A stretch of DNA of 64,000 bases from positions 1 to 64,000 of the forward strand of contig VBDR01000028.1 of assembly GCA_005882135.1 (NCBI GenBank). Direction: 5' to 3'. Positions within the stretch are counted from its first letter, which is position 1. The number at the start of each line of letters is the position of its first letter. This document shows positions 29,675 through 52,804 of the stretch, piece after piece. The translations under genes were made by a program, and so were the position numbers. The notes under the pieces are model-generated. The model saw only the letters and a program-made list of their open reading frames with translations. It was not told the origin of the DNA and ran no database searches. This stretch comes from Chloroflexota bacterium. Its GTDB lineage: Bacteria; Chloroflexota; Dormibacteria; Dormibacterales; Dormibacteraceae.

Positions 29675-32600
29675 GTGCCGCCATTTCCGACCCACGACCT
29701 CCTCGCCGACTTCGGCGAGCTTCGCCACCGGCTGAGCCTGATCCTCGAAGATGAGTCGCGGGCCTCCAGGGCGGATCTGGTCGATGCCTTTCTCCTCGCC
29801 TGCGGGCTGAACCAGATCCTCGAGGACTACATGGGTGACGGCGGCGCCATGCTTGCTGCCGCGGCGCGGGTGGTCAGAGACGGCGCCCCACGAGGGCTCA
29901 ATCGACTTTCACGTCCTCTTGGCGGGACAGCTCGATGGATGCAGCGCCGGCGGGACGGCGGTCAGCTCAGATCTCTCCAGCGCCAGCTCGCACTTGTGGT
30001 CGATTCTCTCGCCGATGACATGGTGCGTGGAGTGGAAGCCTTTGGCACGCCCGAGATTACTTGCCGGGAGGTTCTCACTCACCGCTTGGAGGGGCTGAGC
30101 GAGCTTCATGCGGACGTGCAGTCTCGAGTCATCCGCCTTCCGACCTGTTTTCGAAGCCTCGATCAAGACCCTAGGGACTTCGGCCGGCTGGTCGATCGGT
30201 TTGCCGAGCTCCAGCCTGACCGTGTCCGTCCCATCCTGACAGTCGGTCTGCGATCGTCTGGCAGTTATACCGCTCCCCTGTGCGCGGCCTACCTTCGCGC
30301 CGCCGGCTACCAGCCGGTAGACACAATCACGATCCGACCCCGGCAGCGATGGTTGCCGGGTGAGGTCGAACGCCTCCGCACGGCCGTGAGCACCTCCGCC
30401 ACGATCATGTTGAGCGATGACCCCCCGAGCACGGGGAACTCGCTCCGGGAGGTCGCTCGCAACCTGGAGGCGATGGGAGTTGACCGAGATCGCATTGTGA
30501 TCGCAGTCGCTTCGACGAGCGATCAGTTGCCTGAGTCGATTGCGGAGTATCGGCACGCGGTCCTGCCGGCCAGCCACTGGGCCATCCACGATCGGCTTTC
30601 GGACGACGCCATACGCCAAACGCTGTCGGAACTGCTTGCCGGGGTGACGATCGACGTCAGTTCGACTGATGGTCGCACAACTCAGGTGAGAGTCACGGGG
30701 ATTCGCTCTGTGACCCGCATCAACCTGCCACCGACCATGGATCCGAGCTTGGGTTCCGTGTCCCGCCGTCACGCTCGGGCGCTGTTCAGCGTCGAGCTGG
30801 TCGATGAGGCCGAAGTAGCCCACCGGCATCTCATTTATGCCAAGGGAACCGGGCTTGGGTACCTGGGCGACCACTCGCTTGCTGTCAGTACGCCCCTTCA
30901 CGAGTACCTCCCGGCCATCTACGGTCTCCGCGAAGGTTTGATGTTCCGGGCGTGGCTTCCGGACGAATGGAATGTTGCCCGCGGCCAAGGCCTTGACCTG
31001 CGGATCCTCACCCGACGGATAGCGCGTTACGTCCTGGCCCGGCGCGATGCCCTCGCCACGGGCTCGGACATCACTGACCGGCTTGCCGGTGAAGGCCCCT
31101 CGTGGAAGCAAGCGTCGCTCCTGCTTCGCCGCGGCTTTGGAATGCTCCGCCTGCTGGCGTTACCGATCGCCGATCACGTGGCGCTGCGGCTTCTAAGACC
31201 CAGCCAACCCTCGGTGATCGACGGCAGCATGGCGCTCAAGGAGTGGTTTGCCCAACCCGGGGCCGGCGAGGCCGGCATCCGAAAAGTGGACTTTGACGAG
31301 CGTGCTTTCTGCAACCAGGATCTGATCAAGAACCTTCACTGCTATGACGCGATCTATGACCTGGCCAGCGCGGTTGTCGAATACGAGCAACGCACCAGCG
31401 AGCGCGATCGAAGTGATGAGTTTGTCGAATCTCTGAGGTGCGAATACGAGCGGGCCCTTGGATCTTCCACGACTGAGGAGCGCTGGCTGCTGCATCAACT
31501 TGTTCACAACGTGACCGATCAAATATTCATTACGCAGGAGCTTGCGGATCGCAAGGGAGCGAGCGATCCCCAAATCGCACAAGCACTCACCGCCTCCCAG
31601 CGAAGTTCGTCCCGAGCGGCGCAGCGCTATTACCGTGCCCGGTTCTTTCTCGACATCCAGGTTCCCGCGCACGGTCCGCTGTGCGCCATCGATATCGACG
31701 GTGTTTTGGAGAGCGATCAAATGGGCTTTCCATCGGTGACCCCGGCGGGAGCACTTGCTCTACGCGCGCTGCACATCCATGGTTTTCGTCCGGTCCTGGT
31801 CACTGGCCGGTCACTCGATGAGGTGCGCGAGCGGTGCCGCGCCTACTCCCTGCCAGGTGGGGTGGCGGAGTACGGAGCCACCGTCTACGCCCGCAACCCC
31901 GAACGTACCGTGCAGCTGTCGGGCGACGACGCAGCCGAACGCCTCGGCCAGCTGCGCGCGCGTCTGGCCCTGGAGGCCGGCGTCCACCTTGACGAGACTT
32001 ACCGGGGCATCGTCCGCGCCTATCGCTTCGACCTCAAGGGCAGGCGGCGCCACCTCGAGCCTGCCACCTTGAAGCTGCTCGCGCCGGACGTGGAGCGGTT
32101 GCGCCTGCGCCAGGTCGACGGCGCCTACCAGACGGACTTCGTTCCGGAGGAGGTCGACAAAGGCAAAGGTCTCAACCGCCTCCGGGACATGCTGGGCGGC
32201 GCCGACATCCCTGTAGCGCTTGCAGTCGGCGATAGTCCGGAGGACCTCGCCACCTTCCCGATCGCGGTCAAGGGATTCGCGCCGGGCAACGCCCAGGACG
32301 ACGTCCGCAAGGCAGCTCGAGAGCTGCCCAACCTTCATCTGACCCGCCGGCGGGCACAGGTGGGCCTGGCGGAGGCAGCGGCTTCGGTCATCGGACATCG
32401 GCCGGGCGAGTGCGCTTCCTGCGCCCGGCCCGACGTGGACGCAGAGGGGAGGCTGCTCCTCACCGTCATGTCCGCACCGGACGGTCGCAAGGTTCACAAG
32501 CTTTTCACCATCGCGTCGGCGGGGCTGCAACTGATGCTGCCTTGGGGGGCGTGCGGCAACTCGGTCCTGGGCGTGGCTCGCGAAGCGGGTCGGCGGATCC

Positions 32601-33895
32601 TGAAGGGCGACGGTTTGGTCGGCTCGTCCGGGCTGCTTTTCACCGGCAATCTCATTGCGCGCGCGATCGGCCTGCTTTTCGTCGTGGCGGCGGCTCGTTT
32701 CCTGGGTCCCGCCAACTACGGCTTGATGGCTTTCGCGCTGGTGATCGCCAGCTTCGGCACGGTCCTGATCAGCAATGCACCGGCGGGCATGTCCGGATTC
32801 CTGGCCCGCAACGCGGGTGACCGAGGCCAGCAGGACAAGTACTTCAGCAACTGGGTGCTCGCGGTGGCGGTGGTGCTCGCCGTGAGCCTGATCGCAATCG
32901 TCCCGATCGGCCTCATCGCCGGCTTGCGTGGATGGATGATCCCCGCTCTCATGACCAACCTGCTGGGGATCGCCATTTTCGAGACCTATCGCAACACTCA
33001 GCGCGGATTGGCCAACTTCGGGGCCATGACCGCCTTCTACATCCTGGCCAACGTCGTGCAGTTTTGTGCCGTGATGATCCTGGGACTGGCCGGATTCCAT
33101 AGCGCCACCATCTTCGTGGCGGTCTATGGACTCACCAACGTGGCTGCGCTCGTGGTCCTGCAGCTGCTGAGCCCGCTTCCGCTGACCTTTGCCTTCCGCG
33201 CCGTGCGGCTGGCGCTCGCCCGTAGGATCGCCCTCATCTCGGCGCCCCTGCTGGTGCAGAGCGCGCTCTTTGCGATCTGGTTCGGGGCTGACCTGATCAT
33301 GGTCCGCTTCTTCCTTCCAGCCACCAACACCGGCGATTACGCAGCGTCCAAGACCCTCGTCAACCTCATTGCTCTGCCTGCGGGCGCCATCGGCAGCGCG
33401 CTTGTCCCGCGAATCGCGACCCTCACCGGACCACCATTCAGGCGGCAGCTGGTCAAAGCGCTGCTCCTGGCGGCTGCGCTCGCCGTCCCGGCTCTGGTTG
33501 TCCTCGTCGCGCTCGGCAAGCCGATCGTTGCGCTCGTCTTCGGCGCCAGGTATCCGCATGCGGTGGAGGCGCTGCCGTGGCTCGCTGCGGGGATGTGCGC
33601 CTACGCCTTCTACGTCGTGCTCGAAAGCGTCTGGGTCGGTTTGGGCCGCCCCTTGATCGACGCCGTCGCCACCGCATGCGGCATGGTGATGACGATCGCG
33701 ATCGGGTTGGTGCTGATTTCAGGGACCGGCCTTCCCGGCGCCGGCGCTGCGTTTGCCCTGGGAGCCCTCACCCAGCTCGCGGTGATCGGCGCGTTCACCC
33801 TCATCGTGTACATGCGATCGACCCACGCTGGACGTCCGATCGGCCGGCCCGCCAGCCTCGAAGCCGCGCCGGCCGTGAACGTCGGGGCGGTCTGA
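29675..33895 (+). CDS. Fusion: PRTase-like + kinase-like + HAD phosphatase + Wzx-like flippase
   Basis: A single 1406-residue reading frame. Residues about 180-300 look like a type I phosphoribosyltransferase: ILTVGLRSSGSYTAPLCAAYL, then IMLSDDPPSTGNSLREV in place of the PRPP loop. About 350-650 is a poorly defined region with faint kinase-like traits (YAKGTGLGYLGDHSL, AIYDLASAVVEYE). About 668-905 is a HAD phosphatase: AIDIDGVL, LVTGRS, a DKGKGLNRL lysine region and GDSPEDLATF. About 905-960 is a cysteine-bearing linker. About 975-1395 is a polysaccharide flippase of the Wzx type (GNLIARAIGLLFVVAAARFLGPANYG; about 12 helices). I infer ribose-phosphate transfer to a lipid-linked glycan, dephosphorylation and export in one protein. 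GTG 29675 is the likely start, after a weak site. Confidence 0.8.
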   Translation: MPPFPTHDLLADFGELRHRLSLILEDESRASRADLVDAFLLACGLNQILEDYMGDGGAMLAAAARVVRDGAPRGLNRLSRPLGGTARWMQRRRDGGQLRSLQRQLALVVDSLADDMVRGVEAFGTPEITCREVLTHRLEGLSELHADVQSRVIRLPTCFRSLDQDPRDFGRLVDRFAELQPDRVRPILTVGLRSSGSYTAPLCAAYLRAAGYQPVDTITIRPRQRWLPGEVERLRTAVSTSATIMLSDDPPSTGNSLREVARNLEAMGVDRDRIVIAVASTSDQLPESIAEYRHAVLPASHWAIHDRLSDDAIRQTLSELLAGVTIDVSSTDGRTTQVRVTGIRSVTRINLPPTMDPSLGSVSRRHARALFSVELVDEAEVAHRHLIYAKGTGLGYLGDHSLAVSTPLHEYLPAIYGLREGLMFRAWLPDEWNVARGQGLDLRILTRRIARYVLARRDALATGSDITDRLAGEGPSWKQASLLLRRGFGMLRLLALPIADHVALRLLRPSQPSVIDGSMALKEWFAQPGAGEAGIRKVDFDERAFCNQDLIKNLHCYDAIYDLASAVVEYEQRTSERDRSDEFVESLRCEYERALGSSTTEERWLLHQLVHNVTDQIFITQELADRKGASDPQIAQALTASQRSSSRAAQRYYRARFFLDIQVPAHGPLCAIDIDGVLESDQMGFPSVTPAGALALRALHIHGFRPVLVTGRSLDEVRERCRAYSLPGGVAEYGATVYARNPERTVQLSGDDAAERLGQLRARLALEAGVHLDETYRGIVRAYRFDLKGRRRHLEPATLKLLAPDVERLRLRQVDGAYQTDFVPEEVDKGKGLNRLRDMLGGADIPVALAVGDSPEDLATFPIAVKGFAPGNAQDDVRKAARELPNLHLTRRRAQVGLAEAAASVIGHRPGECASCARPDVDAEGRLLLTVMSAPDGRKVHKLFTIASAGLQLMLPWGACGNSVLGVAREAGRRILKGDGLVGSSGLLFTGNLIARAIGLLFVVAAARFLGPANYGLMAFALVIASFGTVLISNAPAGMSGFLARNAGDRGQQDKYFSNWVLAVAVVLAVSLIAIVPIGLIAGLRGWMIPALMTNLLGIAIFETYRNTQRGLANFGAMTAFYILANVVQFCAVMILGLAGFHSATIFVAVYGLTNVAALVVLQLLSPLPLTFAFRAVRLALARRIALISAPLLVQSALFAIWFGADLIMVRFFLPATNTGDYAASKTLVNLIALPAGAIGSALVPRIATLTGPPFRRQLVKALLLAAALAVPALVVLVALGKPIVALVFGARYPHAVEALPWLAAGMCAYAFYVVLESVWVGLGRPLIDAVATACGMVMTIAIGLVLISGTGLPGAGAAFALGALTQLAVIGAFTLIVYMRSTHAGRPIGRPASLEAAPAVNVGAV

Positions 33896-33901
33896 GAGTT
33901 G

Positions 33902-34834
33902 ATGAATCCGCTGCGCGCCACGGTCGTCATCCCGACCCGCAACCGCCGTGCCCTATTGATGCGAACGCTCGACTCGCTGGAGCAGCAGGAGGCGCCCGCG
34001 GACGAATACGACGTGCTGGTGGTCCTCGACGGGACTGAAGATGATTCCGAAGCATGGCTCCAGCGGCGCCGGCCGGAGCATGCGCTCCGCTGGGTTAGCC
34101 AGCGGCAGGGCGGTCTGGCCGACGCGCGCAATACCGGCGCCAGGCATGCCGCGCATGACGTCCTTCTCTTTTACGACGACGACATGCTTGCGGATCGGGC
34201 CCTGGTTCTAGCTCATCTGAGCGCGCACCGCACGCACGCCGACGTTCTCGTCCAGGGTTACTACCCGATGGCGCCCGCATATTTGAAAGGTGGCGCTGCA
34301 ATCGCTTATGACCGGTCGCACCGCGGCGCGATCGCCGCCATGGAGGCGTCGCCTGGTGGGGGCGCCACCATCTGGGGCGGCAACATCTCGATTCGCAAGT
34401 CGACCTTCAACCGCATCGGCGGCTTTGACCCGAAGAACTTCCGCGAATACGGCGGGGAGGACGCCGACTTCGGACTGAAGGCGATTGCGGCGGGCGTGCC
34501 GGTCGTTCTGGCCAAGGAGGCGTTGGCGCTCCACATGCGCAGAGTCACCTACGCCAGCCACCGGCGGCAAGGGTTTGCCGAGGGCGTATCGCTGGCCAAC
34601 CTCGAAAGGGTGCACGGCACGCGGGTGGAGGCAATCAACGGTGGTGGCGTCGGCGGGGCCTTCGACCGCGTAGCAGGCGCGCTCTGGTCACTCCCGCGCA
34701 TCGCGGACGGCGTCGGACACCTGCTCTCAGGCGGGATGTGGCTCGTGGACCGGGGAATGCCGGCGCCGGTGCAGCTGCGAATGGCGCGTGTCGTCCATAG
34801 GTTCTACAAGGTTGGCGGGCTCCTGCACCGCTAG
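33902..34834 (+). CDS. Family 2 glycosyltransferase
   Basis: A protein of about 310 residues with the GT-A fold. The N-terminus has VVIPTRNRRALLMRTLDSLEQQ, then ADARNTGARHAAHDVLLFYDDDM, the metal-binding DDD (DxD). A later GGNISIRKSTFNRIGGFDPKNFREYGGEDADFGLK carries the catalytic acidic region (ED) of GT2. The tail has one or two hydrophobic stretches. It should add one sugar to a lipid-linked intermediate in the cytoplasm. It starts 6 bases after the fusion protein gene, and its final residues overlap the convergent deacetylase-like gene by four bases. TTG 33899 immediately before is possible. Confidence 0.92.
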   Translation: MNPLRATVVIPTRNRRALLMRTLDSLEQQEAPADEYDVLVVLDGTEDDSEAWLQRRRPEHALRWVSQRQGGLADARNTGARHAAHDVLLFYDDDMLADRALVLAHLSAHRTHADVLVQGYYPMAPAYLKGGAAIAYDRSHRGAIAAMEASPGGGATIWGGNISIRKSTFNRIGGFDPKNFREYGGEDADFGLKAIAAGVPVVLAKEALALHMRRVTYASHRRQGFAEGVSLANLERVHGTRVEAINGGGVGGAFDRVAGALWSLPRIADGVGHLLSGGMWLVDRGMPAPVQLRMARVVHRFYKVGGLLHR

Positions 34835-36663
34835 GCGACATGCCCGACCGCGCACGGCCTGTCCTCCATGGGGTCGGGGAGGGTTTCCGCACCCGGACGC
34901 GCAACCCTTACCAGCGCCGTTGCTCCGGGCGTGACCTCCAGCTCGAGATCGGAACCATGGGCTACATCCGCGCCGCTTGTCAGAGCGCCCCCGCTCGGAA
35001 GGTAGGGACGATGCACGCGATAGCGTCGGATCGCGGTGCTTGGGTTGTGAAGGCAGGCGAGATTGGCGGTCATCAGCACGTCCCAGGCCTCAACGTTGGG
35101 ACGGCGCCTCTGGACGTAACCGTGTCGCGTTATCTCTTCGAGCCCAAGCCAGCTGACGCCCGAGATCGCCACCTGGTTAACGCGCCGCGCCAGCGCGCGC
35201 ACTGGTTCAAAGTCGTCACCAACGTTGCTCCGGTGCCCGAAGTACAGCACCGGTCGTCCAAGCATCAGGTCGAACGGAAAGGTCTCATCAGCCAGGTTGC
35301 GGCGCCATAGCAGTGGGAAGCCGTCCCACGCGAGGTCAGCCGGTCGCATGCCCGCGTCCTCGTCATCGGGTCGCGATGCGCCCAGCGGGTAGCGGTCGAG
35401 CCAGTTCGAGGTCGCGAGGAAGCCACACGCGCCGAGCTCCCCGATCACGCTCGCCGGGCCGAGGCCGTGGGGAAAAACCATCACCCTGTCGAGCGCATGA
35501 CCGGTGCGGCGCGCGAACTCGCGGCCGCGGGCGGCCGCTTCCCTGATCGCGCCGCGCTGTCGCTCCAGAGGCCGGCTTCGGAACCGGCTGTGCCCGTTGT
35601 CGGAGGCAAAGAACTCGTAACCGTCGTGGTCGTTGCCGTGATAGCAGGCGCTGATGCGGCCGTGATTGTTTGCAAGCAGGGCGACCGTCGACCGATCTGC
35701 GAGGCGCAGCTCCCGGGGGACGGTCGCGACCGTGAGGTGAAAGTTGCCCGCGGATGCGGCGGCGAGGGCCGCCCCGAAATCGAGGCCGAGCAAACCCTGA
35801 CGCAGCATTGGATCGTCGATCGTGAAGTTGGCCATCGCGAACGGGCTGTGCCAGGCCGCCTCCCCGTAGAGAGAACGGACGATCAGGAATGCCGGCAGGA
35901 CGCCCAATGCATGCTCCGGTTGCAGGAGGTCGACCGCCCTGCCCTCGCCCGGCGACGGCCCGACGGCCAGCACCAGCCTGCCGCCGGCGACGCCTATCTG
36001 CACGACGGCCGGCAGCAGATCAGCATCCGCGTTCAACCAGGCAATCGGGGTCGCGGCCGGAGAGGCCTCGAAGAAGCAATCGCCTTCGTCGTTCTGGATC
36101 TCCAGGCCGCTCATCTCGGCCGTGATCTCCGGCCGGAGAGCGGAGAACCTCAGCGCGGCGGCCCTCTGCGCCAGAGGCCGGGAGCGAGGCAGCTCCACGC
36201 CCAGCTCTCGGGCCAGGGCCTGCAGCCAGGCGTCGGCCGCCGGCGTGATCTCGCCGATGAAGATGGTGCCGCCGGCCCGGAGGTAGCTCAGCACGTCCGC
36301 GCCGCGGACGGTGGGCCCGGCATCCGCCGTGACGGCGACCAGCGGCCATTGCTCGGTGGTCGCGCGCCTGAAGATCGATGGCCCGTCACCAGTTCGCAGG
36401 TCGATGCCGAAATGAGCCGCCGCCAGGCTGAAGGCCGACCGGGCGGACGCGCTGAGGAGCCCCGCGGTAGCGGCCCTGGGAGCCGCGGATTTCGTGCCGG
36501 CTAGGTTGCGGGGTGTGACCATGCGGACGCGGGCGCGCGAAACCGAACGCTTGGCGAAACCGAGCTGGTCTTTGCCCAGGGCAGAACGCAGCGATTCTTC
36601 CAAGCTCCACACGCGGTGGCGGAATGCTTCGGGCAGCACGCCGATCGAGCTCAGCCTGGACAT
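34831..36663 (-). CDS. NodB-like polysaccharide deacetylase family protein
   Basis: A protein of about 610 residues. The N-terminal about 300 residues have an unassigned alpha/beta region with GGTIFIGEI. The C-terminal half has the metal triad of carbohydrate esterase 4: FTIDDPMLRQG (DD), YHGNDHDG (HxxxH) and a later FPHGLGP. The usual substrate is an N-acetyl sugar in a polymer. ATG 36663 gives the start MSRLSSIGV; an ATG at 36783 exists but lies before an unconserved stretch. It is the only minus-strand gene inside a plus-strand block. It is a paralogue, by motif pattern, of the gene at 40629. Confidence 0.75.
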   Translation of the reverse strand: MSRLSSIGVLPEAFRHRVWSLEESLRSALGKDQLGFAKRSVSRARVRMVTPRNLAGTKSAAPRAATAGLLSASARSAFSLAAAHFGIDLRTGDGPSIFRRATTEQWPLVAVTADAGPTVRGADVLSYLRAGGTIFIGEITPAADAWLQALARELGVELPRSRPLAQRAAALRFSALRPEITAEMSGLEIQNDEGDCFFEASPAATPIAWLNADADLLPAVVQIGVAGGRLVLAVGPSPGEGRAVDLLQPEHALGVLPAFLIVRSLYGEAAWHSPFAMANFTIDDPMLRQGLLGLDFGAALAAASAGNFHLTVATVPRELRLADRSTVALLANNHGRISACYHGNDHDGYEFFASDNGHSRFRSRPLERQRGAIREAAARGREFARRTGHALDRVMVFPHGLGPASVIGELGACGFLATSNWLDRYPLGASRPDDEDAGMRPADLAWDGFPLLWRRNLADETFPFDLMLGRPVLYFGHRSNVGDDFEPVRALARRVNQVAISGVSWLGLEEITRHGYVQRRRPNVEAWDVLMTANLACLHNPSTAIRRYRVHRPYLPSGGALTSGADVAHGSDLELEVTPGATALVRVARPGAETLPDPMEDRPCAVGHVA

Positions 36664-36823
36664 CCGGTAGCCAATTCCACTCCATCGAATAGTGTGCAAT
36701 CGCGCCCGTCGGCCGGCGCCGTGCATGAACAGAAGCCGGGCGGGACAAATGCCTAACCACTGTCCAGGCCGAAGGCAAATCAAACCATTGATCGTCCTGG
36801 CGGCTGATTGCTAGGCTCGCCCC

Positions 36824-38491: not shown

Positions 38492-38746
38492 ATGATCGCC
38501 GAGCAGCCGCTTGAGGACCTGTTGCGAACGCTTTTCTCGCTGCCAGACCTGGAGCTCGGACCCGAAACTGGTTTCGCCGAGATCCCCGGCTGGGATTCGC
38601 TGTCCCACGTCAACGTGATCTTCGAGGTCGAGCGGCGCTTTGGCGTGCGCTTCAGCGATCAGGAGCTGGACCGCTTGCAGGAGCTGGCCACAATCGGTGA
38701 GCTGCAGTCGTTCATCGACGAGAAGCCGCACCCCGCCGGTTCGTGA
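38492..38746 (+). CDS. Acyl carrier protein
   Basis: An 84-residue ACP. Serine 36 in IPGWDSLSHVN is the phosphopantetheine attachment site (usual DSL). Helices around it are acidic as expected (VIFEVERRFGVRF, EELD-like DQELDRLQELATIGEL). ATG 38492 lies one base after the aminotransferase stop codon. It overlaps the next gene (FkbH-like) by four bases. It would be loaded by the FkbH-like enzyme with a three-carbon unit and activated by the phosphopantetheinyl transferase at 42158-42823. Confidence 0.88.
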   Translation: MIAEQPLEDLLRTLFSLPDLELGPETGFAEIPGWDSLSHVNVIFEVERRFGVRFSDQELDRLQELATIGELQSFIDEKPHPAGS

Positions 38747-40644
38747 TGGTCGTCACGGGGACGGGCCTCGAGGCTGATCTTGAAGCCGCACTGGATGCCG
38801 AGCGGCCGGATGCCCGCCTGTGCCTGAGGATCGCCGAGGAATATCACCGCCGCGGCGACCGGCAGCAAGCCTTCAGGTGGCTCGCGCGCGTGGTCGATGC
38901 CTCCGACCAGTTCGTCGAGTGGTCCGGGGCGGCAAGCATGCTGGCGCGACTGGCCGCCGAGGAGCGGCCCCTGGCCCGGCGCCAGGCGAGAATCGCGCTG
39001 ACCGGGAGCTACACGCTCAAGCCGTTTGGGGCCCTGCTCCGACTCGCCGCCCTCCGGGAGGGGATCGACGTCGTCCTCCACGAGAGCGGTTACGACCAGT
39101 ACCGGCAGGAGCTGCTCGACGGGGCCAGCCCGCTCTACCGGTTCGAGCCCAGCCACATCGTCATCGCGCCGCATGCGGGGGAGCTGAGATTCTCCGACCC
39201 GGGCGAGGAGCCTTCGCTGCGGCTGTCCAGGGAAGTCGAGCGCTGGAGTGCCCTGTGGGGCGCAGCCAGGCTGCATTCCAATGCGACGGTGGTGCAGCAT
39301 CTCTTCGTCCTGCGTCCCGAGGAATCGCTCGGTCACCTCAGTGCAAGGTTGCAGGGCAGCCGCTATTCCCTCACGCGCGAGCTCAATCGCGCGCTGGCTC
39401 AGGACGCGCCCGAAGGGGTGTTGGTCGTGGACCTCGAGCGGATCGCGGCGGACTTCGGCAAGCGTCAGTGGTTTGACGATCGCTACTGGCACATGACCAA
39501 GCAAGCCGTCGCGCTGGACGCCCTGCCTCTCATCGCCCGCCACACCGCCGCGGTGCTGGCTGCGTCCCTCGGCCTGAGCCGCAAGTGCCTCGTCCTCGAC
39601 CTCGACGGGACGCTGTGGGGGGGGGTGGTCGGTGATGATGGGCTGCCGGGAATCCGGCTTGGGACCGGCGCCGACGGGGAGGCGTTCGTCGCGTTCCAGG
39701 AGTACGTGCTCGAGCTCAAATCCCGCGGCATCGTTCTCGCCGTCGTCTCCAAGAACGACGACGCGGTGGCGCGCCTCCCGTTCGAGCGACATCCCGACAT
39801 GCGGATCAAGCTCGACGACATCGCGGTTTTCCGCGCCAACTGGGACGACAAGGCGACCAACCTCACGGCGATCGCGCAGTCGCTGGGCATCGGCCTCGAT
39901 GCACTCACGTTCGTCGACGACAACGTCCTGGAGCGACAGCTCGTGCGCCGCATGCTGCCGGAGGTTGACGTCGTCGACCTGCCGGAGGATCCCTCCGCGT
40001 ATGTGCGCCGGATGGCCGACTACCTGAGGTTCGAGACCGTCTCCCTCACCGACGAGGACCTGAATCGGACCGAGCAGTACCGCGCCAGGAACGCCGTGGA
40101 GGCGCTCCGCCAGTCGACCGTCAGCCTGGACGAGTTTCTGGCCAGCCTGAAGATGGCCGCTTACGTCGCCCCATTCGACGAGCTGCACCTGCCGCGCATC
40201 GCACAGCTGATGGGCAAGACCAACCAGTTCAACCTGACCGGCTTGAGATGCAGCGAGGACGAGCTTCGCCGGCTGATGGGCGACCCGGATGCCGTCCATC
40301 TGTACCTCAGGCTGAAAGACCGGTTCACCGACCACGGCCTGGTGGCGGTTCTCATTGGCCGGCGAGAGGGCTCCTTGATGCTTATCGAGAGCTGGCTGAT
40401 GAGCTGCCGGGTCATCGGCCGGGCCGTCGAGGAGTGGATGCTCGAGGAGCTGTGCCTGCGCGCCACCGCGATCGGCTGCGCAAGGCTGAGAGGGAGTTAC
40501 ATCCCCTCGGGCCGCAACGAGCTGGTGCGCGACCTGTACCCGCGTCTTGGCTTTGTCCAGGCCGGCGAGGGCGCCTGGGAGCTGGATCTGCAGGACCGGA
40601 CGCCGGCCGCCAGGTCACACATCGGCACATGGGACGGAAAGTAG
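38743..40644 (+). CDS. FkbH-like HAD-IIIC enzyme (glyceroyl-ACP forming)
   Basis: A 633-residue protein with the FkbH layout. Residues 1-270 are an N-terminal extension found in the longer FkbH proteins (SGNH-like, with HIVIAPHAGELRF). About 285-430 is the HAD-IIIC domain (KCLVLDLDGTLWGGVVGDDG, VVSKNDDAVA, TFVDDNVLERQLVR). About 450-625 is a GNAT-like domain (LMGKTNQFNLTG, LIESWLMSCRVIGRAVEEWML). FkbH enzymes take 1,3-bisphosphoglycerate and load a glyceroyl unit on an ACP. GTG 38743 or ATG 38746 are both possible starts. The gene overlaps the ACP and is followed by a deacetylase-like gene. Confidence 0.88.
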   Translation: MMVVTGTGLEADLEAALDAERPDARLCLRIAEEYHRRGDRQQAFRWLARVVDASDQFVEWSGAASMLARLAAEERPLARRQARIALTGSYTLKPFGALLRLAALREGIDVVLHESGYDQYRQELLDGASPLYRFEPSHIVIAPHAGELRFSDPGEEPSLRLSREVERWSALWGAARLHSNATVVQHLFVLRPEESLGHLSARLQGSRYSLTRELNRALAQDAPEGVLVVDLERIAADFGKRQWFDDRYWHMTKQAVALDALPLIARHTAAVLAASLGLSRKCLVLDLDGTLWGGVVGDDGLPGIRLGTGADGEAFVAFQEYVLELKSRGIVLAVVSKNDDAVARLPFERHPDMRIKLDDIAVFRANWDDKATNLTAIAQSLGIGLDALTFVDDNVLERQLVRRMLPEVDVVDLPEDPSAYVRRMADYLRFETVSLTDEDLNRTEQYRARNAVEALRQSTVSLDEFLASLKMAAYVAPFDELHLPRIAQLMGKTNQFNLTGLRCSEDELRRLMGDPDAVHLYLRLKDRFTDHGLVAVLIGRREGSLMLIESWLMSCRVIGRAVEEWMLEELCLRATAIGCARLRGSYIPSGRNELVRDLYPRLGFVQAGEGAWELDLQDRTPAARSHIGTWDGK

Positions 40645-42167
40645 GGGTCGTTCCAGCCCGTGAGCTGGCGCGGCGCGCCAACCTGTTCCGCGCCCTGGGC
40701 GCCGCCTTCGACATCACATTTGAAGGACGCGAAGCCGCGGCGACCGCCGGCCTGGATGGCGTGATCGCCTTCCCCGGAGCCCACCCCAAGCCGGGACCGT
40801 TCGCAATATTGCACGTGATCGGACCTGTCGCCAAAGATGGAGAAGCCGAGGTGCGGTTTGGCGGCGACGCGCCGGTTGACCGTGTGCTGCGCGGCCGGAC
40901 GATGATCGAGTCAAGGGCGCCGGCCGGCTCACTCGCGGCCCAGCCACAGGGCATCGTGCTCGCATCGTGCAACGGCCGACCCGTATGGCTGGCTCACGGC
41001 TTGGGCCCGAATCAAAGCTTCTCGGTCCTGCTGGCGCCCGAAGAGCTGGCCCGCGGCGAGCCGCTCGCCGACCGCCTACGCCCCGGGCGTTTCCTCGCCC
41101 TGCTCCCGCTGATCGAGTTCTTGAGAAACATTGACGGGGGCTGGACACAGCCGCCGCTGCGGGCGGCCTTCATCTTCGACGATCCAAATCTCCACTCCGG
41201 GTCCTACGGCCACATCGACTACCGGCGATTGGCCGCCCAGGCGCGCCGCTCTGGTTTCCACGCCGTGATGGCGACCATCCCCCACGATCTGACGTTCGCG
41301 TCACGCCCGGTGGTGGAGCTGTTCATCCGGGAAAGGGAGCTCCTTTCGCTCACCATCCACGGCAATGACCATGTCTCGCAGGAGCTGCTGCGCGAGAGGA
41401 CTGAAAACGAAAGCCTCGCGCTGGCCGCGCAGGCGCTGGTCCGAACCGTGCGCTTCGAGAAACGAACGGGCCTCGAGGTTTCGCGCGTCATGTGTGCCCC
41501 GTTCGAGGTCTGCAGCGAACAGACGATGCGGGCCGTGTTCCGAACCGGATTTGAGGCGCTCGCCATCGAGCAGGTCCAGCTGAGGGCGGCGATGGCCGAG
41601 CTGGATTCCCTTCTTGGCTTTCTTCCGGCGGACCGCGCGAACAACGGGCTGCCGGTCGTGCCTCGGCATCGGCTCGACACCCCGGTAGATCAGCTCGTCT
41701 TGTCTGCCTTTCTGCGCCGGCCGCTGTTTCTGTACGGCCATCATGCGGACGTGGCCCGCGGCTACGAGCGCCTGGCCGGCATCGCCGATCTCGTCAACTC
41801 TTTCGGCGACGTGTCCTGGGCCCCACTCTCGGCGGCCGCTCGCGGGAGCTACGCGTGGCGGCTGGACGACGGGGTGATGACCGTGCGCCTGCACGGTCGC
41901 GTCGCGTCAATCGAAACTCCGGAGCCGGTTGGGCGAGTCGTGGTCAGGCTGCCGGGCTCGGGCATGCCGGCCGGTCTCGATGTGGCCACTGAGATCACCT
42001 CGTTGGCTGACGCCCATCGAGTTAGAGTCGAGGTGCGGCCGCGGGATCCGGTGGACGCCGCTTTGGTCGCGGCTCCGCGCTGGAGCCCGTGGCCCACGCT
42101 GCGCAGGACCGCGACCGAGCTGCGGGACCGAGCCTCGGCGGCGGCCGTGGGGAACCTGTGGAGGTAG
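40629..42167 (+). CDS. NodB-like deacetylase family protein (second copy)
   Basis: A 512-residue protein from ATG 40629, which overlaps the FkbH-like gene by 16 bases. The first 180 residues are a globular region without a recognised family. The C-terminal region has the metal triad FIFDDPNLHSG (DD) and TIHGNDH (HxxxH), then VMCAPFEV, and a later LYGHHADVARGY. The pattern mirrors the protein at 34831-36663 (FTIDDPMLRQG, HGNDH). Two related enzymes flanking an amino-sugar and acyl module suggest de-N-acylation, O-deacylation or polymer trimming. The next gene overlaps by 10 bases. Confidence 0.75.
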   Translation: MGRKVGVVPARELARRANLFRALGAAFDITFEGREAAATAGLDGVIAFPGAHPKPGPFAILHVIGPVAKDGEAEVRFGGDAPVDRVLRGRTMIESRAPAGSLAAQPQGIVLASCNGRPVWLAHGLGPNQSFSVLLAPEELARGEPLADRLRPGRFLALLPLIEFLRNIDGGWTQPPLRAAFIFDDPNLHSGSYGHIDYRRLAAQARRSGFHAVMATIPHDLTFASRPVVELFIRERELLSLTIHGNDHVSQELLRERTENESLALAAQALVRTVRFEKRTGLEVSRVMCAPFEVCSEQTMRAVFRTGFEALAIEQVQLRAAMAELDSLLGFLPADRANNGLPVVPRHRLDTPVDQLVLSAFLRRPLFLYGHHADVARGYERLAGIADLVNSFGDVSWAPLSAAARGSYAWRLDDGVMTVRLHGRVASIETPEPVGRVVVRLPGSGMPAGLDVATEITSLADAHRVRVEVRPRDPVDAALVAAPRWSPWPTLRRTATELRDRASAAAVGNLWR

Positions 42168-42823
42168 TCCAGCTGCGACCCGAGCACGCGATCAGGCTTC
42201 CAGCGTCCGCACAGCTGCGCCCGGGACAGTTTCGACTGGTCGCGGCGCCCCTTGACCTTCCCGCGGACGAGATGGCCGCGCTGTCCGCGACCCTCTCCAG
42301 GGACGAGTGGGACAGGGCTCGTCGGCGCCCCCAAGATCGCCGCTGGATCGCTTCGCGGGGTTGGCTGCGCTGCCTGCTCTCGAGCGAGCTCGACTGCCCG
42401 CCGGCCGCGATCCAGCTCGAGACCGACGAACATGGGAAGCCGGCCGTCTCGGGTTGTGAGATCGACTTCAACCTTTCGCATTCCGCAGGCCTGGCGCTTT
42501 ATGCCGTCGGCAGGCAAGTATCAATCGGCGTCGACGTCGAGTCTCTGAGCCGCCGCCTGCTGTGGTCAGATCTCGCAGGACGTTTCTACTCGGCCGAGGA
42601 AGCAACCTTTATCAGCTCGCTCGGCGAAGAGGTTCGGCCCCTGGCCTTCCTCTCCATCTGGACGCTGAAGGAGGCGTACGCGAAAGGCGTTGGGCGCGGA
42701 CTGGCCGCGGTCCTGAATCCGGGCGTCAGCGGCGATGAACAAAGCGGCTGGACCACCATCAGCCTGACGCCGGCGGCCGGCTACATCGGCGCGGTGGCGG
42801 TCCGGCTGCGAGAAGTCGCCTAG
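42158..42823 (+). CDS. 4'-phosphopantetheinyl transferase (Sfp/HetI type)
   Basis: A protein of about 221 residues with the Sfp-type motifs: DFNLSHSAGLALYAV, SIGVDVE (Mg-binding D and E), and WTLKEAYAKGVGRGL. It transfers the phosphopantetheine arm from CoA to a carrier protein serine. GTG 42158 overlaps the deacetylase-like gene by 10 bases. The only carrier protein visible nearby is the ACP at 38492, so it likely activates that ACP. Its stop overlaps the minus-strand acyltransferase that follows. Confidence 0.92.
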   Translation: MEVVQLRPEHAIRLPASAQLRPGQFRLVAAPLDLPADEMAALSATLSRDEWDRARRRPQDRRWIASRGWLRCLLSSELDCPPAAIQLETDEHGKPAVSGCEIDFNLSHSAGLALYAVGRQVSIGVDVESLSRRLLWSDLAGRFYSAEEATFISSLGEEVRPLAFLSIWTLKEAYAKGVGRGLAAVLNPGVSGDEQSGWTTISLTPAAGYIGAVAVRLREVA

Positions 42824-43347
42824 GCGCGCGTGACCTCTTCGCTGGAGCGGAGCGGCTTCAGCCGCCGGTAGAACTCGGTCGCGGACGACTGCGAGCCAAG
42901 CGGTACCTCGCAGCGGGCGATGGGCCGCGCGGGATTGCCCTGGACGACGACCATCGCGGGCACCGAGCCTGAGACCACGCTGCCCGCGGTCACCACCGAG
43001 CCCCGGCCGATGGTGACGCCAGGCAGGATGATCGCGCCCGGACCGATCCACACGTCGTCCTCGATGGAGACCGAGTATCGACGCGTGCCCAGGATCTGCC
43101 TCGTGAGGTCGTTGAAATGGGCGATGATCGTGCTCCGGACACCAAGGACGACGTTGTCCCCGATCGACACCAGCTCCGGATGCGCCGTCTCGACGATGAC
43201 GTCGGTGCTGATGAAAACCCGCTGGCCGATGCGGACGCCGCGCCAGCGGTGCAAAGCGACCCGCACGCCGGTCGCGCCGGGCGCAAATTGCGCCAGGGCC
43301 TGCAGGAATCGGATCTTCAGGTCATGGAGGAGCGACACGCTGACCAA
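42820..43347 (-). CDS. Hexapeptide-repeat acyltransferase
   Basis: A 175-residue LbH enzyme of the O-acetyltransferase type used on polysaccharides. Turns read VRIGQRVFISTDVIVE, VSIEDDVWIGPGAIILPGVTIG and SVVTAGSVVSGSVPAMVVVQGNPARPI (the standard C-terminal cap). The family adds acetyl groups to sugar hydroxyls. It begins with a TTG at 43347 after a weak site. It converges with the phosphopantetheinyl transferase and is otherwise alone on the minus strand here. No clear regulator. Confidence 0.85.
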   Translation of the reverse strand: MVSVSLLHDLKIRFLQALAQFAPGATGVRVALHRWRGVRIGQRVFISTDVIVETAHPELVSIGDNVVLGVRSTIIAHFNDLTRQILGTRRYSVSIEDDVWIGPGAIILPGVTIGRGSVVTAGSVVSGSVPAMVVVQGNPARPIARCEVPLGSQSSATEFYRRLKPLRSSEEVTRA

Positions 43348-46960: not shown

Positions 46961-47129
46961 CCAGTCCCGGCGCCGGCATCTCCTGTCCCCGCGACATAGG
47001 ACCTTTGCCTATTTACGCTTGGAAACTCCGCACCTAGCCTGCGTGCGTGGGGTGCACCTGGACCTAGCGGACGCGTGCCCGCCGGGATCCGATCGGGATG
47101 CGATCGATCAATACAGCTCGACAGAGCGT

Positions 47130-47762
47130 ATGGCGGTCGCCCGTCAGCGGCAGGTTTCGTGGAAGAGACCGTTCGATCTGGTGGTCGGCGTGAGCGCGAC
47201 GCTTTTGCTGCTGCCGCTTCTCGCCGTGCTGGCCGTGCTGGTGAAGGCGGACAGCCCAGGACCCATCCTCTTTCGGCAGGAGCGCGTGGGATTGCACGGC
47301 GCGCGATTCAAGATGTGGAAGTTCCGCTCCATGCGCCATAACAGCGACGAGCGCACACATCGGGCCTCGGCGATCGCGTGGTTCGCCGGGGAGACCGCGG
47401 CCGGCCCCTACAAGTCTCTCGCCGATTCTCGGGTGACCCGTGTCGGCAGGTTCCTGCGCCGCACGAGCCTCGACGAGCTGCCCCAGCTCTTCAACGTCCT
47501 CCGCGGGGACATGAGCCTGGTCGGTCCGCGACCGGCGATCGCGTACGAGCTGGAGCACTACCTGCCCTGGTACTTCGAGCGCCAGATGGTCAAGCCTGGA
47601 ATGACCGGGCTGTGGCAGGTCTCCGGCCGGACCGAGCTCTCGGCCGGAGAGATGATGGCGCTCGACGTGCGCTACGTCCGCGAGGCTGGGCTGGGGCTCG
47701 ACCTCAAGATCCTCGCTCTCACCGTGCCTGCCCTGTTGGGCCTGTCTTCGGCAGGCGCATAG
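47130..47762 (+). CDS. Priming bacterial sugar transferase
   Basis: A 210-residue polyprenyl-phosphate hexose-1-phosphate transferase. One N-terminal helix ([25 protein letters not shown]) is followed by the catalytic core ([59 protein letters not shown]). It adds the first sugar phosphate to undecaprenyl phosphate to start repeat-unit synthesis. I chose ATG 47130, which gives the usual family length; an earlier start at 47019 adds an unconserved stretch. It heads a run of co-oriented genes to 52804. Confidence 0.93.
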
Positions 47763-47766: not shown

Positions 47767-49272
47767 ATGGACGAGCGGGCCGCCTTCAAGACGATCGGGC
47801 ACGCGATCCGGCACAGGTTTTACGTGTTGATCGCCATCCTTGCACTCTTCCTGATTGGCGCCGGGGTGGCGTCGGTCATCAGGCCGCCTGTCTACCAGGG
47901 CACCGCCGTGCTCCGGGTCGACGAGCGAATAAACGCCTCGCAGGGATTTGACCTGGCGCTGCAGGCGGGCGAGCTCCTGAGCGCGCATTTCATCCAGAGC
48001 GCGACGAGCCAGCCCGTCCTACAGCGAGCGTGCTCCGGTCCCAACCTGGCCAAGACACCACTGCCGAGCCTGACCTGCACGGCCACGAGCCTGGCTCTGC
48101 GCGTGAGCGCGAACACCACTCGGGGCGGGGCCAACTGGATAGCCGTCAGCGTCACCGCCTCCTCAGCCGCCGACGCGGCCGCGCTGGCCGACGCAGTCGC
48201 TTACGCGATGATGGATCAGAACGCGGCCGACATCGACCAGCTGATTGCCCCGACCCGCGAGTACCTGCAGAACGAGCTCACGCGTATCAACACCGAGATC
48301 GCGACCGTGCAGGCCAACCTCGCCAAGGTGCCGCCGAGTCCACTGACCTCGCCTGCGACCACGGCGGAACAGACGCACCTCACCCTCCTGCAAAGTGAAT
48401 ACGGCTCGACGTATGACAAGTTGCAGGCGCTTGCGACTGAGCAACAGCGCCTGTCGGGAAGCCTGACGTTGGTGCAGACCGCGTCGCCGCCGGTCAAGCC
48501 GATCGACCCCGACCCGCTGCGCTACCTGGCCATCGCTCTGGTGGCCGGGCTGTGCATCGGGCTCGCCGCGGTGGTGTTGCTGGACCGGTTCGACGACCGG
48601 CTGTTCGAAACTGAGGCTCTGTCCCAGGCCGCCGGCACGCGGCTTGTCATCGCCGTCTCCCACAAGGATGCGTTGACCGCGCGCGCGGAGCCTTACGCGT
48701 TGGCCCGCGCCAACCTGCTCGCGCAGCACCCTCACATGCGCAAGCTGCTCGTCGTCGCCGCCTCGCGGCGCGACCTGGTGAGGCCGATCGCGGCTGGTCT
48801 CGGGCTGGCCGGGGTCAAGGCGGGCCAGAAGGTGCTTGTCGTCGACGCCGACGCCAACACGTACGTGATGCAGCAGCAGCATGGCATGAACGGCTCGCGG
48901 ATGACGATCGTGAGCGCGCCGCCCGACCCGGACGTGCGCATCGCCAACGAAGCCGCCGGCCAAGAGGACGACAAGTACGACCTGACGATCATGTCCGCTC
49001 CGAGTCCGGACCGCGATTCGACGGCGGTGTCCCTGGCGCGGACGGTGGATCTCGCGATTGTGGTCGCCACCGCGAAGACCACGCGGTCCTCCGATGTCAG
49101 GCGCACCGCAGAAGCCCTGCGGCTCGCCGGCATCCAGGTCGTGGCGAGCATCTTCGCGACCGATGCCGCGAAGGAGGCGCCCGCGGAGCCGGAAACGCCG
49201 GCGAAGGAGGTTTACGAGGTGGCGGCCAACCAGTACCGCCTCCCGACGTGGCGCGGCCCGACTGGATCGTGA
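47767..49272 (+). CDS. Wzz/BY-kinase-like chain-length regulator with degenerate P-loop
   Basis: A 501-residue protein. The N-terminal Wzz-type part (1-280) has transmembrane helices at about 18-38 and 256-275 and a coiled-coil (about 175-225, LQNELTRINTEIATVQANL). The C-terminal part (about 310-490) aligns with the kinase domain of bacterial tyrosine kinases: LLVVAASRRDLVRPIAAGLGLAGVKAGQKVLVVDADAN. It lacks the Walker A GxGK(T/S), and no tyrosine-rich tail is seen. It probably sets polymer length without kinase activity. The gene is followed by a glycosyltransferase overlapping by 25 bases. Confidence 0.8.
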   Translation: MDERAAFKTIGHAIRHRFYVLIAILALFLIGAGVASVIRPPVYQGTAVLRVDERINASQGFDLALQAGELLSAHFIQSATSQPVLQRACSGPNLAKTPLPSLTCTATSLALRVSANTTRGGANWIAVSVTASSAADAAALADAVAYAMMDQNAADIDQLIAPTREYLQNELTRINTEIATVQANLAKVPPSPLTSPATTAEQTHLTLLQSEYGSTYDKLQALATEQQRLSGSLTLVQTASPPVKPIDPDPLRYLAIALVAGLCIGLAAVVLLDRFDDRLFETEALSQAAGTRLVIAVSHKDALTARAEPYALARANLLAQHPHMRKLLVVAASRRDLVRPIAAGLGLAGVKAGQKVLVVDADANTYVMQQQHGMNGSRMTIVSAPPDPDVRIANEAAGQEDDKYDLTIMSAPSPDRDSTAVSLARTVDLAIVVATAKTTRSSDVRRTAEALRLAGIQVVASIFATDAAKEAPAEPETPAKEVYEVAANQYRLPTWRGPTGS

Positions 49273-51454: not shown

Positions 51455-52804
51455 ATGAACGTGGTCGTCGCCGCCGTCGGAGGCGTGGCTGCGCTCGGGC
51501 TGCTCGCGCTCACCATCAGGCGTCCGATCTTCGGATGCGCGGTCCTCGTCTTGACAGTCCCGCTCACGGCGGGGCTGACGCGCGGGGCGGTCATCCCGGT
51601 GCTGAAGGCCAGCGAAGTGATCCTGCTCGTCGTCCTCGCGGGCGTCGTCATTCACCAGGTGACCACCAGGCGTTCGAGACCGGTGAGCGGCCTCGATATC
51701 GCCGTGGGCGCATACGTCATCGGCAGCATCGTCATCCCATGGACGGTCCTGCTCCTGTCGCATTGGTCGGCCGACCTGGACACGTGGCGAACCGTCCTCT
51801 CGCCGGCGCTCTTCCTGGGTGTCTACTACGTCTTCTCGCGAACGGCGCCCACGCATGACCGCCTGCGGATCGTCCTCAACTCAACGCTGGCGGCGGGCGT
51901 CATCGTGGGCCTGATCGCGGGCGCCGAGATCCTGAACCTGCCCGGGGTTCGTGACTTTTTCGCCACCTACTATCCCGGTCCGAGCCAGGCCTCGTATCGC
52001 GCGAACTCGACCCTGGGTCATTACAGCGCTGTCGGCGCTTTTGGCCTCCTCACCTTCATCCTGGCGCTGTCCCTCGCCGCCTTCCGACATCGAGACTTTC
52101 CCGGGTGGTGGCTGGCTGCGGTCATGGGGGCAAGCGCCCTGGGCATGCTGGCGAGCGGGACATGGGCCGCCTTGGCAACCTTGCCGGTGGCGACCGTGAT
52201 CGTGCTTTTCTACGCCCGCCGCGTCCCCCGCGAGCTGATCGTGACCGTCGCGTGCGCCGCCGTCCTGGTGGTGGTCCTCTGGCCCGAGATCAGCCAGCGC
52301 ATTGAGAGCCAGCAGCTGATCACGGCCCAGGGCTTTGCGCTCCCGGAAAGCATGCAGACGCGGATCCGCTACTGGACTGAGTTCATCATCCCCGCCCTCA
52401 GCGACCACCTGTGGGTCGGCACCGGCACGGTGATTCCCAGCACCGTCCCCGACCGGCTGACCAGCTTTGTCGACAACGAGTACCTGTGGGCTGCTTTTCG
52501 GGCCGGCCTGGTCGGCGTCGCGCTCCTGGTGGGGATGCTCTTGACGATCATGTCGGTCGCCTGGAAACAGCGCGGGGACATGGATCCTTCCCGACGCGTG
52601 ATAGGCGCTGCGTCCCTGGCCACCTGCGCCATGTTGCTGATGCTGGGAGCGACCGCACAGTACATCACGTTCGCGGGTCTCTCCCAGGAGATTGCGATGC
52701 TGGTCGGGGTCCTGGCCGGGCTGACGGCCGCTGTTGATGTGCGGAGACCGGCCGCAGTTGTGGTCGCGAACCCGAAGGAATCGACGGCCCTGGGGCTTGG
52801 GTAA
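51455..52804 (+). CDS. O-antigen ligase/polymerase family (Wzy/WaaL-like)
   Basis: A 449-residue membrane protein with about 12 helices. The large loop between later helices carries the family motif around YRANSTLGHYSAVGAFGLL and SMQTRIRYWTEFIIPALSDHLWVGTGTVIPST. It should polymerise repeat units (Wzy) or ligate the glycan to an acceptor (WaaL); in a Wzx-dependent locus the polymerase is the likelier role. ATG 51455 lies 19 bases after the previous stop. The operon ends here at a long hairpin. Confidence 0.85.
   Translation: MNVVVAAVGGVAALGLLALTIRRPIFGCAVLVLTVPLTAGLTRGAVIPVLKASEVILLVVLAGVVIHQVTTRRSRPVSGLDIAVGAYVIGSIVIPWTVLLLSHWSADLDTWRTVLSPALFLGVYYVFSRTAPTHDRLRIVLNSTLAAGVIVGLIAGAEILNLPGVRDFFATYYPGPSQASYRANSTLGHYSAVGAFGLLTFILALSLAAFRHRDFPGWWLAAVMGASALGMLASGTWAALATLPVATVIVLFYARRVPRELIVTVACAAVLVVVLWPEISQRIESQQLITAQGFALPESMQTRIRYWTEFIIPALSDHLWVGTGTVIPSTVPDRLTSFVDNEYLWAAFRAGLVGVALLVGMLLTIMSVAWKQRGDMDPSRRVIGAASLATCAMLLMLGATAQYITFAGLSQEIAMLVGVLAGLTAAVDVRRPAAVVVANPKESTALGLG

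What the first reader, a model, noticed from the sequence alone, without database searches (positions are those of the whole stretch)
29675..33895. PRTase-like, HAD phosphatase and Wzx-like flippase fused in one 1406-residue protein
One uninterrupted frame contains a phosphoribosyltransferase-like fold (SDDPPSTGNSL in the PRPP loop position), a kinase-like middle, a HAD phosphatase (AIDIDGVL, GDSPEDLATF) and a flippase with about 12 helices. Ribofuranose in some bacterial surface polysaccharides is known to be added from PRPP in two steps: phosphoribosyl transfer and then dephosphorylation by a HAD-family enzyme. This gene would combine both steps with export, as the first gene of the polysaccharide locus. 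I know of no described protein with this combination. The weak point is the PRTase call, which rests on one motif and fold-like sequence.
Basis: partly seen in the sequence, partly recalled or inferred. Interest (0 to 1): 0.85.

Follow-up and report, generated by a model that had tools for sequence, protein, structure and literature searches.

The report
Ribosylation-like enzyme fused to flippase
A bacterium known from a draft genome carries one long gene that joins a probable two-step ribose-adding enzyme, with a kinase-shaped domain in its middle, to the membrane protein that exports sugar units; the enzyme half is a real family found in several groups of bacteria, but the joining to the exporter has been seen in this one genome only.

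Summary
Residues 1-958 give a confident AlphaFold2 model (pLDDT 88.7, pTM 0.90). The weak PRTase call holds up: 11 of 20 family members, window included, match PF00156 at E<=0.1, two relatives exceed Pfam's cut-off, and the PRPP-loop DD is in 20 of 20. The middle has a choline-kinase/APH fold with variable catalytic positions. The HAD is type IIB with its catalytic residues kept. The C-terminus is the only PF01943 flippase on its contig. Residues 1-950 form a stand-alone family, also in Chloroflexi, Pseudonocardia, Rhodococcus and Solirubrobacterales; 12 of 19 named loci hold a flippase nearby. The fusion is seen only here (none in the 9 of 10 other family carriers whose end is on the contig; none in 19 named loci), so a lost stop or assembly error is not excluded. 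Best reading: PRPP-dependent phosphoribosyl transfer to a lipid-linked glycan, dephosphorylation, export. It works like gPRT-PRP ribofuranosyltransferases but differs in domain order, HAD cap and kinase-like insert. Ribose is untested.

The parts
29675..33895 (+). whole fused gene, 1406 aa, GTG start
29675..30124 (+). N-terminal helical region, residues 1-150
   Evidence: DSSP of AF2 model, helices 13-25, 32-70, 73-93, 96-118, 129-143
30143..30664 (+). type I phosphoribosyltransferase-like domain, residues 157-330
   Evidence: PF00156 in 11 of 20 family members at E<=0.1, over the cut-off in two relatives, below it in the window; PDB profile hits PyrR/UPRT/OPRT E 0.002-0.003; strand/helix order in model
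30245..30277 (+). conserved loop GLRSSGSYTAP, residues 191-201
   Evidence: G191, R193, S195, G196, P201 in 20 of 20
30416..30439 (+). PRPP-loop motif DDPPSTGN, residues 248-255
   Evidence: D248 D249 in 20 of 20; S/T253 19 of 20; G254 16 of 20
30686..31549 (+). choline-kinase/APH-fold domain, residues 338-625, probably divergent or inactive as a kinase
   Evidence: AF2 of residues 338-640 pLDDT 88.0; Foldseek best choline kinase 7nb2 E 4.8e-7, TM 0.49, rmsd 9.6
31667..32392 (+). HAD-IIB phosphatase domain, residues 665-906
   Evidence: TIGR01484/TIGR01482/TIGR00099 by E-value, below their curated cut-offs; Foldseek 1wr8 TM 0.82 by target; D673 D675 K829 D853 D857 in 20 of 20
32393..32542 (+). 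conserved tail of the enzyme family: H-x-P-G-x-C-x-x-C and two helices, residues 907-956
   Evidence: H908, C913, C916 each 19 of 20; helices 923-932, 939-954
32516..32626 (+). junction between enzyme and flippase, residues 948-984; ATG at 32534 would fit a stand-alone flippase start
   Evidence: relatives' enzyme ends and flippase starts fall here; start codons listed
32603..33874 (+). Wzx/MATE-type flippase, residues 977-1400
   Evidence: Polysacc_synt and Polysacc_synt_3 over cut-off; relatives; only PF01943 hit on this contig
33899..34834 (+). GT2 glycosyltransferase, next gene, 3 bases between stop and start
   Evidence: PF00535 E 1.6e-18
47019..47762 (+). initiating sugar-phosphate transferase of the locus
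   Evidence: Bac_transf E 7.2e-63
47767..49272 (+). Wzz-like chain length protein
   Evidence: Wzz E 6.2e-6
51455..52804 (+). Wzy/O-antigen-ligase-like membrane protein, separate from the flippase here
   Evidence: Wzy_C E 1.9e-9; 66% identical to the Wzy part of the Wzy-Wzx frames in L030 and L053

Best explanation
The gene encodes a cytoplasmic two-step sugar-adding enzyme tethered to the locus's flippase. Shown by computation: the folds, the conservation of the PRPP-loop aspartates and of the HAD catalytic residues, the single frame in the assembly, the polysaccharide locus, and the repeated neighbourhood with flippases. Inferred: the PRTase domain takes PRPP and moves ribose-5-phosphate onto a sugar of the undecaprenyl-pyrophosphate-linked repeat unit; the HAD domain removes the 5-phosphate, leaving ribofuranose; the choline-kinase-fold domain between them holds the acceptor or the two active sites rather than acting as a normal kinase; the flippase at the C-terminus, the only PF01943 protein on this contig, then turns the finished unit to the outside. 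The fusion would couple the last cytoplasmic step with export.
For: PRT: PF00156 in 11 of 20 members at E<=0.1, best 2.2e-6, 2 of 10 cut-out domains over the curated cut-off; profile hits to PyrR, UPRT, OPRT; DD 20 of 20. HAD: catalytic residues 20 of 20. PRT and HAD lie in one frame in the 20 rows aligned (L051, where the enzyme lies in two frames, was left out). Context by phmmer at E<=1e-5: GT2 in 10, deacetylase in 10, flippase in 12 of 19 named loci; the two flippase groups are related (hhalign 95.9%, 365 columns). The two-step logic is shown experimentally for Bcs3 and Cj1432 (passages). Only PF01943 protein on the contig. Relatives of the flippase are in one open frame with another protein of the pathway, Wzy, in 5 genomes, so fusion of this flippase is not odd.
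Against: The window's own PRT match to Pfam is below the cut-off (E 0.06 and 0.033). hhalign of the PRT profile against five PRTases of the same genome gave 33.3% probability, against 8.6% for the kinase-like profile as a control: in register, but weak. G of the PRPP loop is W or A in 4 of 20 members. No fold search of the PRT domain alone was made; the 50 listed matches of the whole model were filled by the HAD part. Nothing shows ribose or the acceptor. The fusion is in 1 of 11 family carriers and 0 of 19 named loci. HAD-IIB enzymes act on many sugar phosphates (recalled). Flippases are common in polysaccharide loci, so nearness is weak evidence.
Confidence: 0.5

Rival explanations
1. Three-component variant: the PRT/HAD protein makes undecaprenyl-phosphate-ribose, the flippase moves this lipid-linked single sugar out, and a membrane GT-C enzyme adds it outside, as in Citrobacter youngae O1.
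For: Recurrent nearness of the enzyme to a MATE-type flippase (12 of 19 loci); a 619-aa multi-helix membrane protein without Pfam match near it in L035, and similar frames in L041 and L045 (not scanned against Pfam); the described system has PRT+HAD, MATE flippase, GT-C.
Against: The described lipid-forming transferase is an integral membrane protein of the UbiA family (passage); here residues 1-958 have no hydrophobic segment by the simple count and a type I PRT. The fused flippase is the only PF01943 one on the contig of a Wzx/Wzy-type locus, which would leave the repeat unit without one. I did not identify a GT-C in the window, but did not search for one by profile.
Confidence: 0.2
2. The enzyme and the flippase are two genes; the single frame comes from a recent stop loss in this strain or from an assembly error, with the flippase made from its own start at 32534.
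For: Fusion seen once; draft genome of 91 contigs, 85% complete; the enzyme family ends and the flippases begin just where the junction lies; an ATG sits there, and TGA overlaps it in the +1 frame.
Against: The frame is open with high third-position G+C across the junction; the family's tail helix runs in frame up to residue 954, pLDDT 95 for residues 941-950 and 80 for 951-958; no strong ribosome-binding site is seen by eye before 32534; related flippases occur in Wzy-Wzx frames in 5 genomes.
Confidence: 0.35
3. The HAD and PRT folds serve another chemistry: for example a small nucleoside-like or phosphorylated decoration, with the kinase-fold domain as an active sugar kinase.
For: The kinase fold is in all 20 aligned rows, with D516 in 20 of 20 and K537 in 19 of 20; an APH domain is encoded nearby in 9 of 19 loci.
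Against: Neighbours are glycosyltransferases, deacetylases and flippases; candidate catalytic positions of the kinase fold vary (position 390: K in 4 of 20; position 539: D in 11 of 20).
Confidence: 0.15

Closest known systems
Bcs3 of the type b capsule of Haemophilus influenzae (CroT-CrpP-CriT; passages of PMC10299916)
   Same: one protein joins a HAD phosphatase with a PRTase-like domain that uses PRPP to add ribose-5-phosphate to a glycan; helical bundles flank the PRT core
   Different: order there is GT-B, HAD, PRT; here PRT, kinase fold, HAD, flippase. No entry of that name is among the best 60 of 62 PDB profile hits shown; I did not check that it is in that library
Cj1432 of Campylobacter jejuni HS:2 (passages of PMC12096443)
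   Same: PRPP-dependent ribose-5-phosphate transfer, then HAD dephosphorylation in one polypeptide
   Different: GT4-HAD-PRT order plus a C-terminal four-helix bundle, 1031 aa; no kinase fold or flippase is described in those passages
gPRT-PRP ribofuranosyltransferases (Kelly 2022, not held, recalled; described in PMC11127046, introduction and passages)
   Same: PRT plus HAD, two-step logic
   Different: a passage describes an alpha-helical HAD cap, for ORF15 and by its wording for the PRP domains; here the cap is alpha/beta and the HAD is type IIB
Three-component pentofuranose system of Citrobacter youngae O1/O2 (PMC11127046; outline and abstract, introduction, discussion part 1 of 2 and passages seen)
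   Same: PRT + HAD in one protein that works with a MATE-family flippase
   Different: there a UbiA-type membrane transferase, a separate flippase gene and a GT136 enzyme outside
Choline kinase / APH / macrolide phosphotransferase fold
   Same: fold of residues 338-640
   Different: no sequence match by profile; candidate catalytic positions not all kept

Membership tests
Type I phosphoribosyltransferase (PF00156) | profile match over Pfam cut-off | tested here: inconclusive
   Window copy below it (13.1 to 13.9 against 26.3 bits). Of 10 relatives submitted (of 19 rows of the PRT alignment), two are over it: L037 29.0, L046 28.6
Type I phosphoribosyltransferase (PF00156) | PRPP loop with two acidic residues, then T/S and G | tested here: met
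   window DDPPSTG; DD 20 of 20, T/S 19 of 20, G 16 of 20; the motif rule itself is recalled
Type I phosphoribosyltransferase (PF00156) | use of PRPP | not testable with these tools
   needs an assay
HAD superfamily, subclass IIB | motifs DxD, T/S-G-R, K, GDxxxD and alpha/beta cap between motifs II and III | tested here: met
   NCBIfam TIGR01484 E 3.3e-8 but 33.8 bits against a cut-off of 41.8; motif rule recalled
gPRT-PRP ribofuranosyltransferase | PRT and HAD in one polypeptide | tested here: met
   the 20 rows aligned, chosen as one-frame members; L051 has the enzyme in two frames
gPRT-PRP ribofuranosyltransferase | HAD (PRP) domain with alpha-helical cap | tested here: not met
   cap residues 736-815 hold strands and helices; the 50 listed matches (of 79 at E<=0.001) are HAD-type or hypothetical proteins by title, among them sucrose- and trehalose-phosphate phosphatases; PRP cap as described in the passage
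gPRT-PRP ribofuranosyltransferase | transfer of ribose to a glycan | not testable with these tools
   needs assay or sugar analysis
Choline kinase/APH kinases | fold | tested here: met
   Foldseek E 4.8e-7, probability 1.00, TM 0.49 by query, rmsd 9.6
Choline kinase/APH kinases | conserved catalytic and metal-binding residues | tested here: inconclusive
   D516 20 of 20, but positions 390 and 539 vary; equivalences inferred by eye, no superposition made
Wzx/MATE-type polysaccharide flippase | Polysacc_synt profile and multi-helix membrane protein | tested here: met
Three-component pentofuranose system | UbiA-type membrane polyprenyl-phosphate phosphoribosyltransferase | tested here: not met
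   no hydrophobic segment in residues 1-958, type I PRT instead; definition from a passage

The most novel reading that the evidence does not exclude
A new family of PRPP-dependent glycan ribosyltransferases (type I PRT, kinase-fold scaffold, HAD-IIB), independent of gPRT-PRP, that works hand in hand with a flippase and in this organism is physically joined to it, so that one molecule makes the last sugar and exports the unit.
Probability: 0.35. Interest if true: 0.75.

Novelty: new variant of a known kind. Interest (0 to 1): 0.6.

Why it matters
Ribofuranose entry into bacterial glycans was explained only recently, by the enzyme types named above. A further arrangement, spread over several phyla and present in Pseudonocardia asaccharolytica DSM 44247 and Rhodococcus spelaei, would widen that set, would give a marker for ribose-containing polysaccharides in uncultured bacteria, and, through the fusion, would name the flippase partner of the enzyme. 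A soluble sugar-adding enzyme joined to a Wzx would also make coupling of synthesis and export directly testable.

Tried and rejected
Single-protein searches gave nothing firm for the PRT and kinase parts; the PADLOC scan gave no match, so a defence role has no support there. Profile of the kinase-like part against PDB sequences: two hits, E 1.6 and 2; hhalign against the neighbouring APH domains: no link. The kinship to kinases rests on the fold alone. hhalign of the PRT profile against own PRTases was weak (33.3%; controls: against APH 0.2%; kinase-like part against PRTases 8.6%). I considered that a shift of frame just before the junction makes the fusion (TGA overlapping ATG in the +1 frame) and hold it less likely, because the family's tail helix runs in frame up to residue 954. 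A flippase tree did not place the window's flippase inside a Wzy-fused group (long end branch of 1.03, no well-supported set holds it, 5 of 14 inner branches drawn open), so the idea that it was moved from a Wzy-Wzx fusion is open. Of 394 genomes of the class of Rhodococcus spelaei (drawn evenly, two candidates scored per genome in the rows shown) only that genome itself carries the enzyme at E<=1e-40, though one search found other carriers titled Pseudonocardia. The tally, 234 of 400, is mostly short HAD-only matches and was not used as a count of carriers; long matches there (E below 1e-90) are in 11 genomes, with no frame over 1127 aa besides the window's. Rows dropped before counts: L051 from the 20-row alignment (enzyme in two frames), one of two L048 rows from the PRT alignment (gap in the domain). 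The literature searches listed no description of this architecture; the library holds open papers only.
Full report
Observation. One frame without stops runs from 29675 to 33895 on the plus strand. The next gene on the same strand, a GT2 glycosyltransferase, follows with 3 bases between stop and start. The gene before it lies on the other strand and is a T2SSE-type ATPase, so this is the first gene of the plus-strand run. Further down are an initiating sugar-phosphate transferase, a Wzz-like protein, two GT1/GT4-type transferases and a Wzy-like protein. The contig holds no other PF01943 flippase; the genome has four more on other contigs. Other flippase families were not searched.

Relatives. 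In 61 genomes (the window's own and 60 relatives), and then in the 42 held genomes of its family, residues 1 to about 950 and residues about 970 to 1400 are found as separate genes. At E<=1e-20, 11 of 42 family genomes have the enzyme part, the window included. In G017 the enzyme runs off the contig before its C-terminal end, so a fusion there cannot be judged; in G021 it is cut at its N-terminal end; in G420 it lies in two pieces, the later one in a frame of 375 aa, too short for a flippase. The remaining carriers end without a flippase. A scan of one genome per species found 19 named loci: MAGs titled Dormibacterota, Chloroflexi, Anaerolineales, Solirubrobacterales, Nocardiopsaceae and others, Pseudonocardia (including P. 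asaccharolytica DSM 44247) and Rhodococcus spelaei. In none of the 19 does the enzyme's frame go on into a flippase; it ends within 63 residues of the last aligned residue.

PRTase part. The window's own copy gives PF00156 only at E 0.06 or 0.033, below the cut-off. Among 20 aligned members, 11 match at E<=0.1, best 2.2e-6. Of ten cut-out domains (of 19 rows), nine match at E<=0.1 and two pass the curated cut-off. The family profile finds PyrR, uracil and orotate phosphoribosyltransferases among solved structures at E 0.002 to 0.003; a chain named OT3 scored slightly better, E 0.0006, with no stretch passing on its own. Against five PRTases of the own genome hhalign gave 33.3%, with the PRPP loops in register; the kinase-like part as a control gave 8.6%. 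The two aspartates of DDPP are in 20 of 20, S/T follows in 19 of 20 and G in 16 of 20; three members have W and one A at that place. The model shows the alternating strands and helices of the fold with DD at the end of a strand. I take the PRTase fold as well supported and PRPP use as likely.

Kinase-like part. No sequence match was found, but a separate model of residues 338-640 (pLDDT 88.0, pTM 0.87) matches choline kinase, macrolide and aminoglycoside phosphotransferases and maltokinase: 39 matches have E<=0.001, and the 50 listed are kinases or kinase-like by title; the superposition is loose (best row TM 0.49, rmsd 9.6). D516 and D558 are in 20 of 20, K537 in 19 of 20, but the strand position where a lysine might be expected (390) is K in 4 of 20 and position 539 is D in 11 of 20. 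My mapping of these positions on the kinase fold is by eye. I think it is a scaffold or acceptor-binding domain.

HAD part. HAD-IIB by NCBIfam E-values (below their cut-offs) and by fold (best 1wr8, TM 0.82 by target; sucrose-phosphate and trehalose-phosphate phosphatases among the listed), with D673, D675, G711-R712, K829, D853 and D857 in 20 of 20. These relatives dephosphorylate sugar phosphates, some of them disaccharide phosphates (recalled). A passage on the published PRP domains describes an alpha-helical cap; here the cap is alpha/beta. A conserved tail with H908, C913 and C916, each in 19 of 20, follows.

Flippase and fusion. By phmmer at E<=1e-5, 12 of the 19 named loci hold a flippase near the enzyme: three of the window's type, nine of a second type. 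The second type is in one open frame with an APH-like kinase domain in seven loci; an APH-like domain is nearby in 9 of 19, GT2 in 10 and a deacetylase in 10. Some contigs are short, so these are lower bounds. The two flippase types are related. Flippases occur in most polysaccharide loci (recalled), so nearness alone is weak evidence; the fusion in the window is the stronger hint. Relatives of the window's flippase stand in one open frame behind a Wzy-like protein in G017, G420, G038, G027 and G036; Pfam confirmed both halves in L030 (G017), and in L055 (G036) it matched the flippase and a glycosyltransferase but no Wzy_C, the Wzy part resting on 45% identity to the window's Wzy. These are stop-to-stop frames; starts were not examined. 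The window's separate Wzy is 66% identical to the Wzy part of two of them. So this flippase appears joined to different partners of the pathway. Whether the window's join is natural cannot be settled: it is seen once, in a draft genome of 91 contigs and 85% completeness, and an ATG at 32534 would serve as a start of a separate flippase.

How it likely works. Inference from the two-step enzymes Bcs3 and Cj1432 (passages): ribose-5-phosphate from PRPP is put on a sugar of the lipid-linked unit, the HAD domain takes the phosphate off, and the flippase turns the unit over. The three-component alternative remains open. Ribose, acceptor and linkage are untested.

Verdict. Observation confirmed; interpretation partly supported. 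The listings of six literature searches showed no description of this architecture (open papers only). It is best called a new variant of a known kind of two-step PRPP-dependent glycan modification, and not filed as a member of the gPRT-PRP family.

Noticed in passing
L030:7434-10232 (+), L053:1-2778 (+), L031:15553-18393 (+), L059 and L025 (-), L055 (-): Wzy/O-antigen-ligase-like protein and Wzx flippase in one open frame in five genomes; in G036 a glycosyltransferase domain follows in the same frame by Pfam, in G027 by eye.
   Followed up: partly
L035, L040, L041, L045, L049, L050, L051: A second MATE-type flippase in one open frame with an APH-like kinase domain, near the PRT-HAD gene; Pfam APH was confirmed in L035 only, and H-G-D...N is invariant in the five APH rows aligned. 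A flippase with a small-molecule-kinase domain looks unusual.
   Followed up: partly
38743-44460 (+): FkbH-like protein, 4'-phosphopantetheinyl transferase and FkbM methyltransferase inside the polysaccharide locus; may mean an ACP-bound glyceryl or similar decoration.
   Followed up: no
34831-36783 (-) and 40248-42167 (+): Two proteins without Pfam match at E<=0.01 that share by eye IDDP/FDDP and HGNDH motifs, like a very divergent polysaccharide deacetylase; a similar protein lies in L034 (8893-11556, -).
   Followed up: no
L038, L039, L043 (PRPP-loop position 254): The glycine of the PRPP loop is W in three family members (DDPPRTW/DDPPRSW), which would be odd for an active PRTase.
   Followed up: no
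L048 (9911-12622 + and 16824-19652 -): Two divergent copies of the PRT-kinase-HAD protein in one locus of a Chloroflexi MAG.
   Followed up: no
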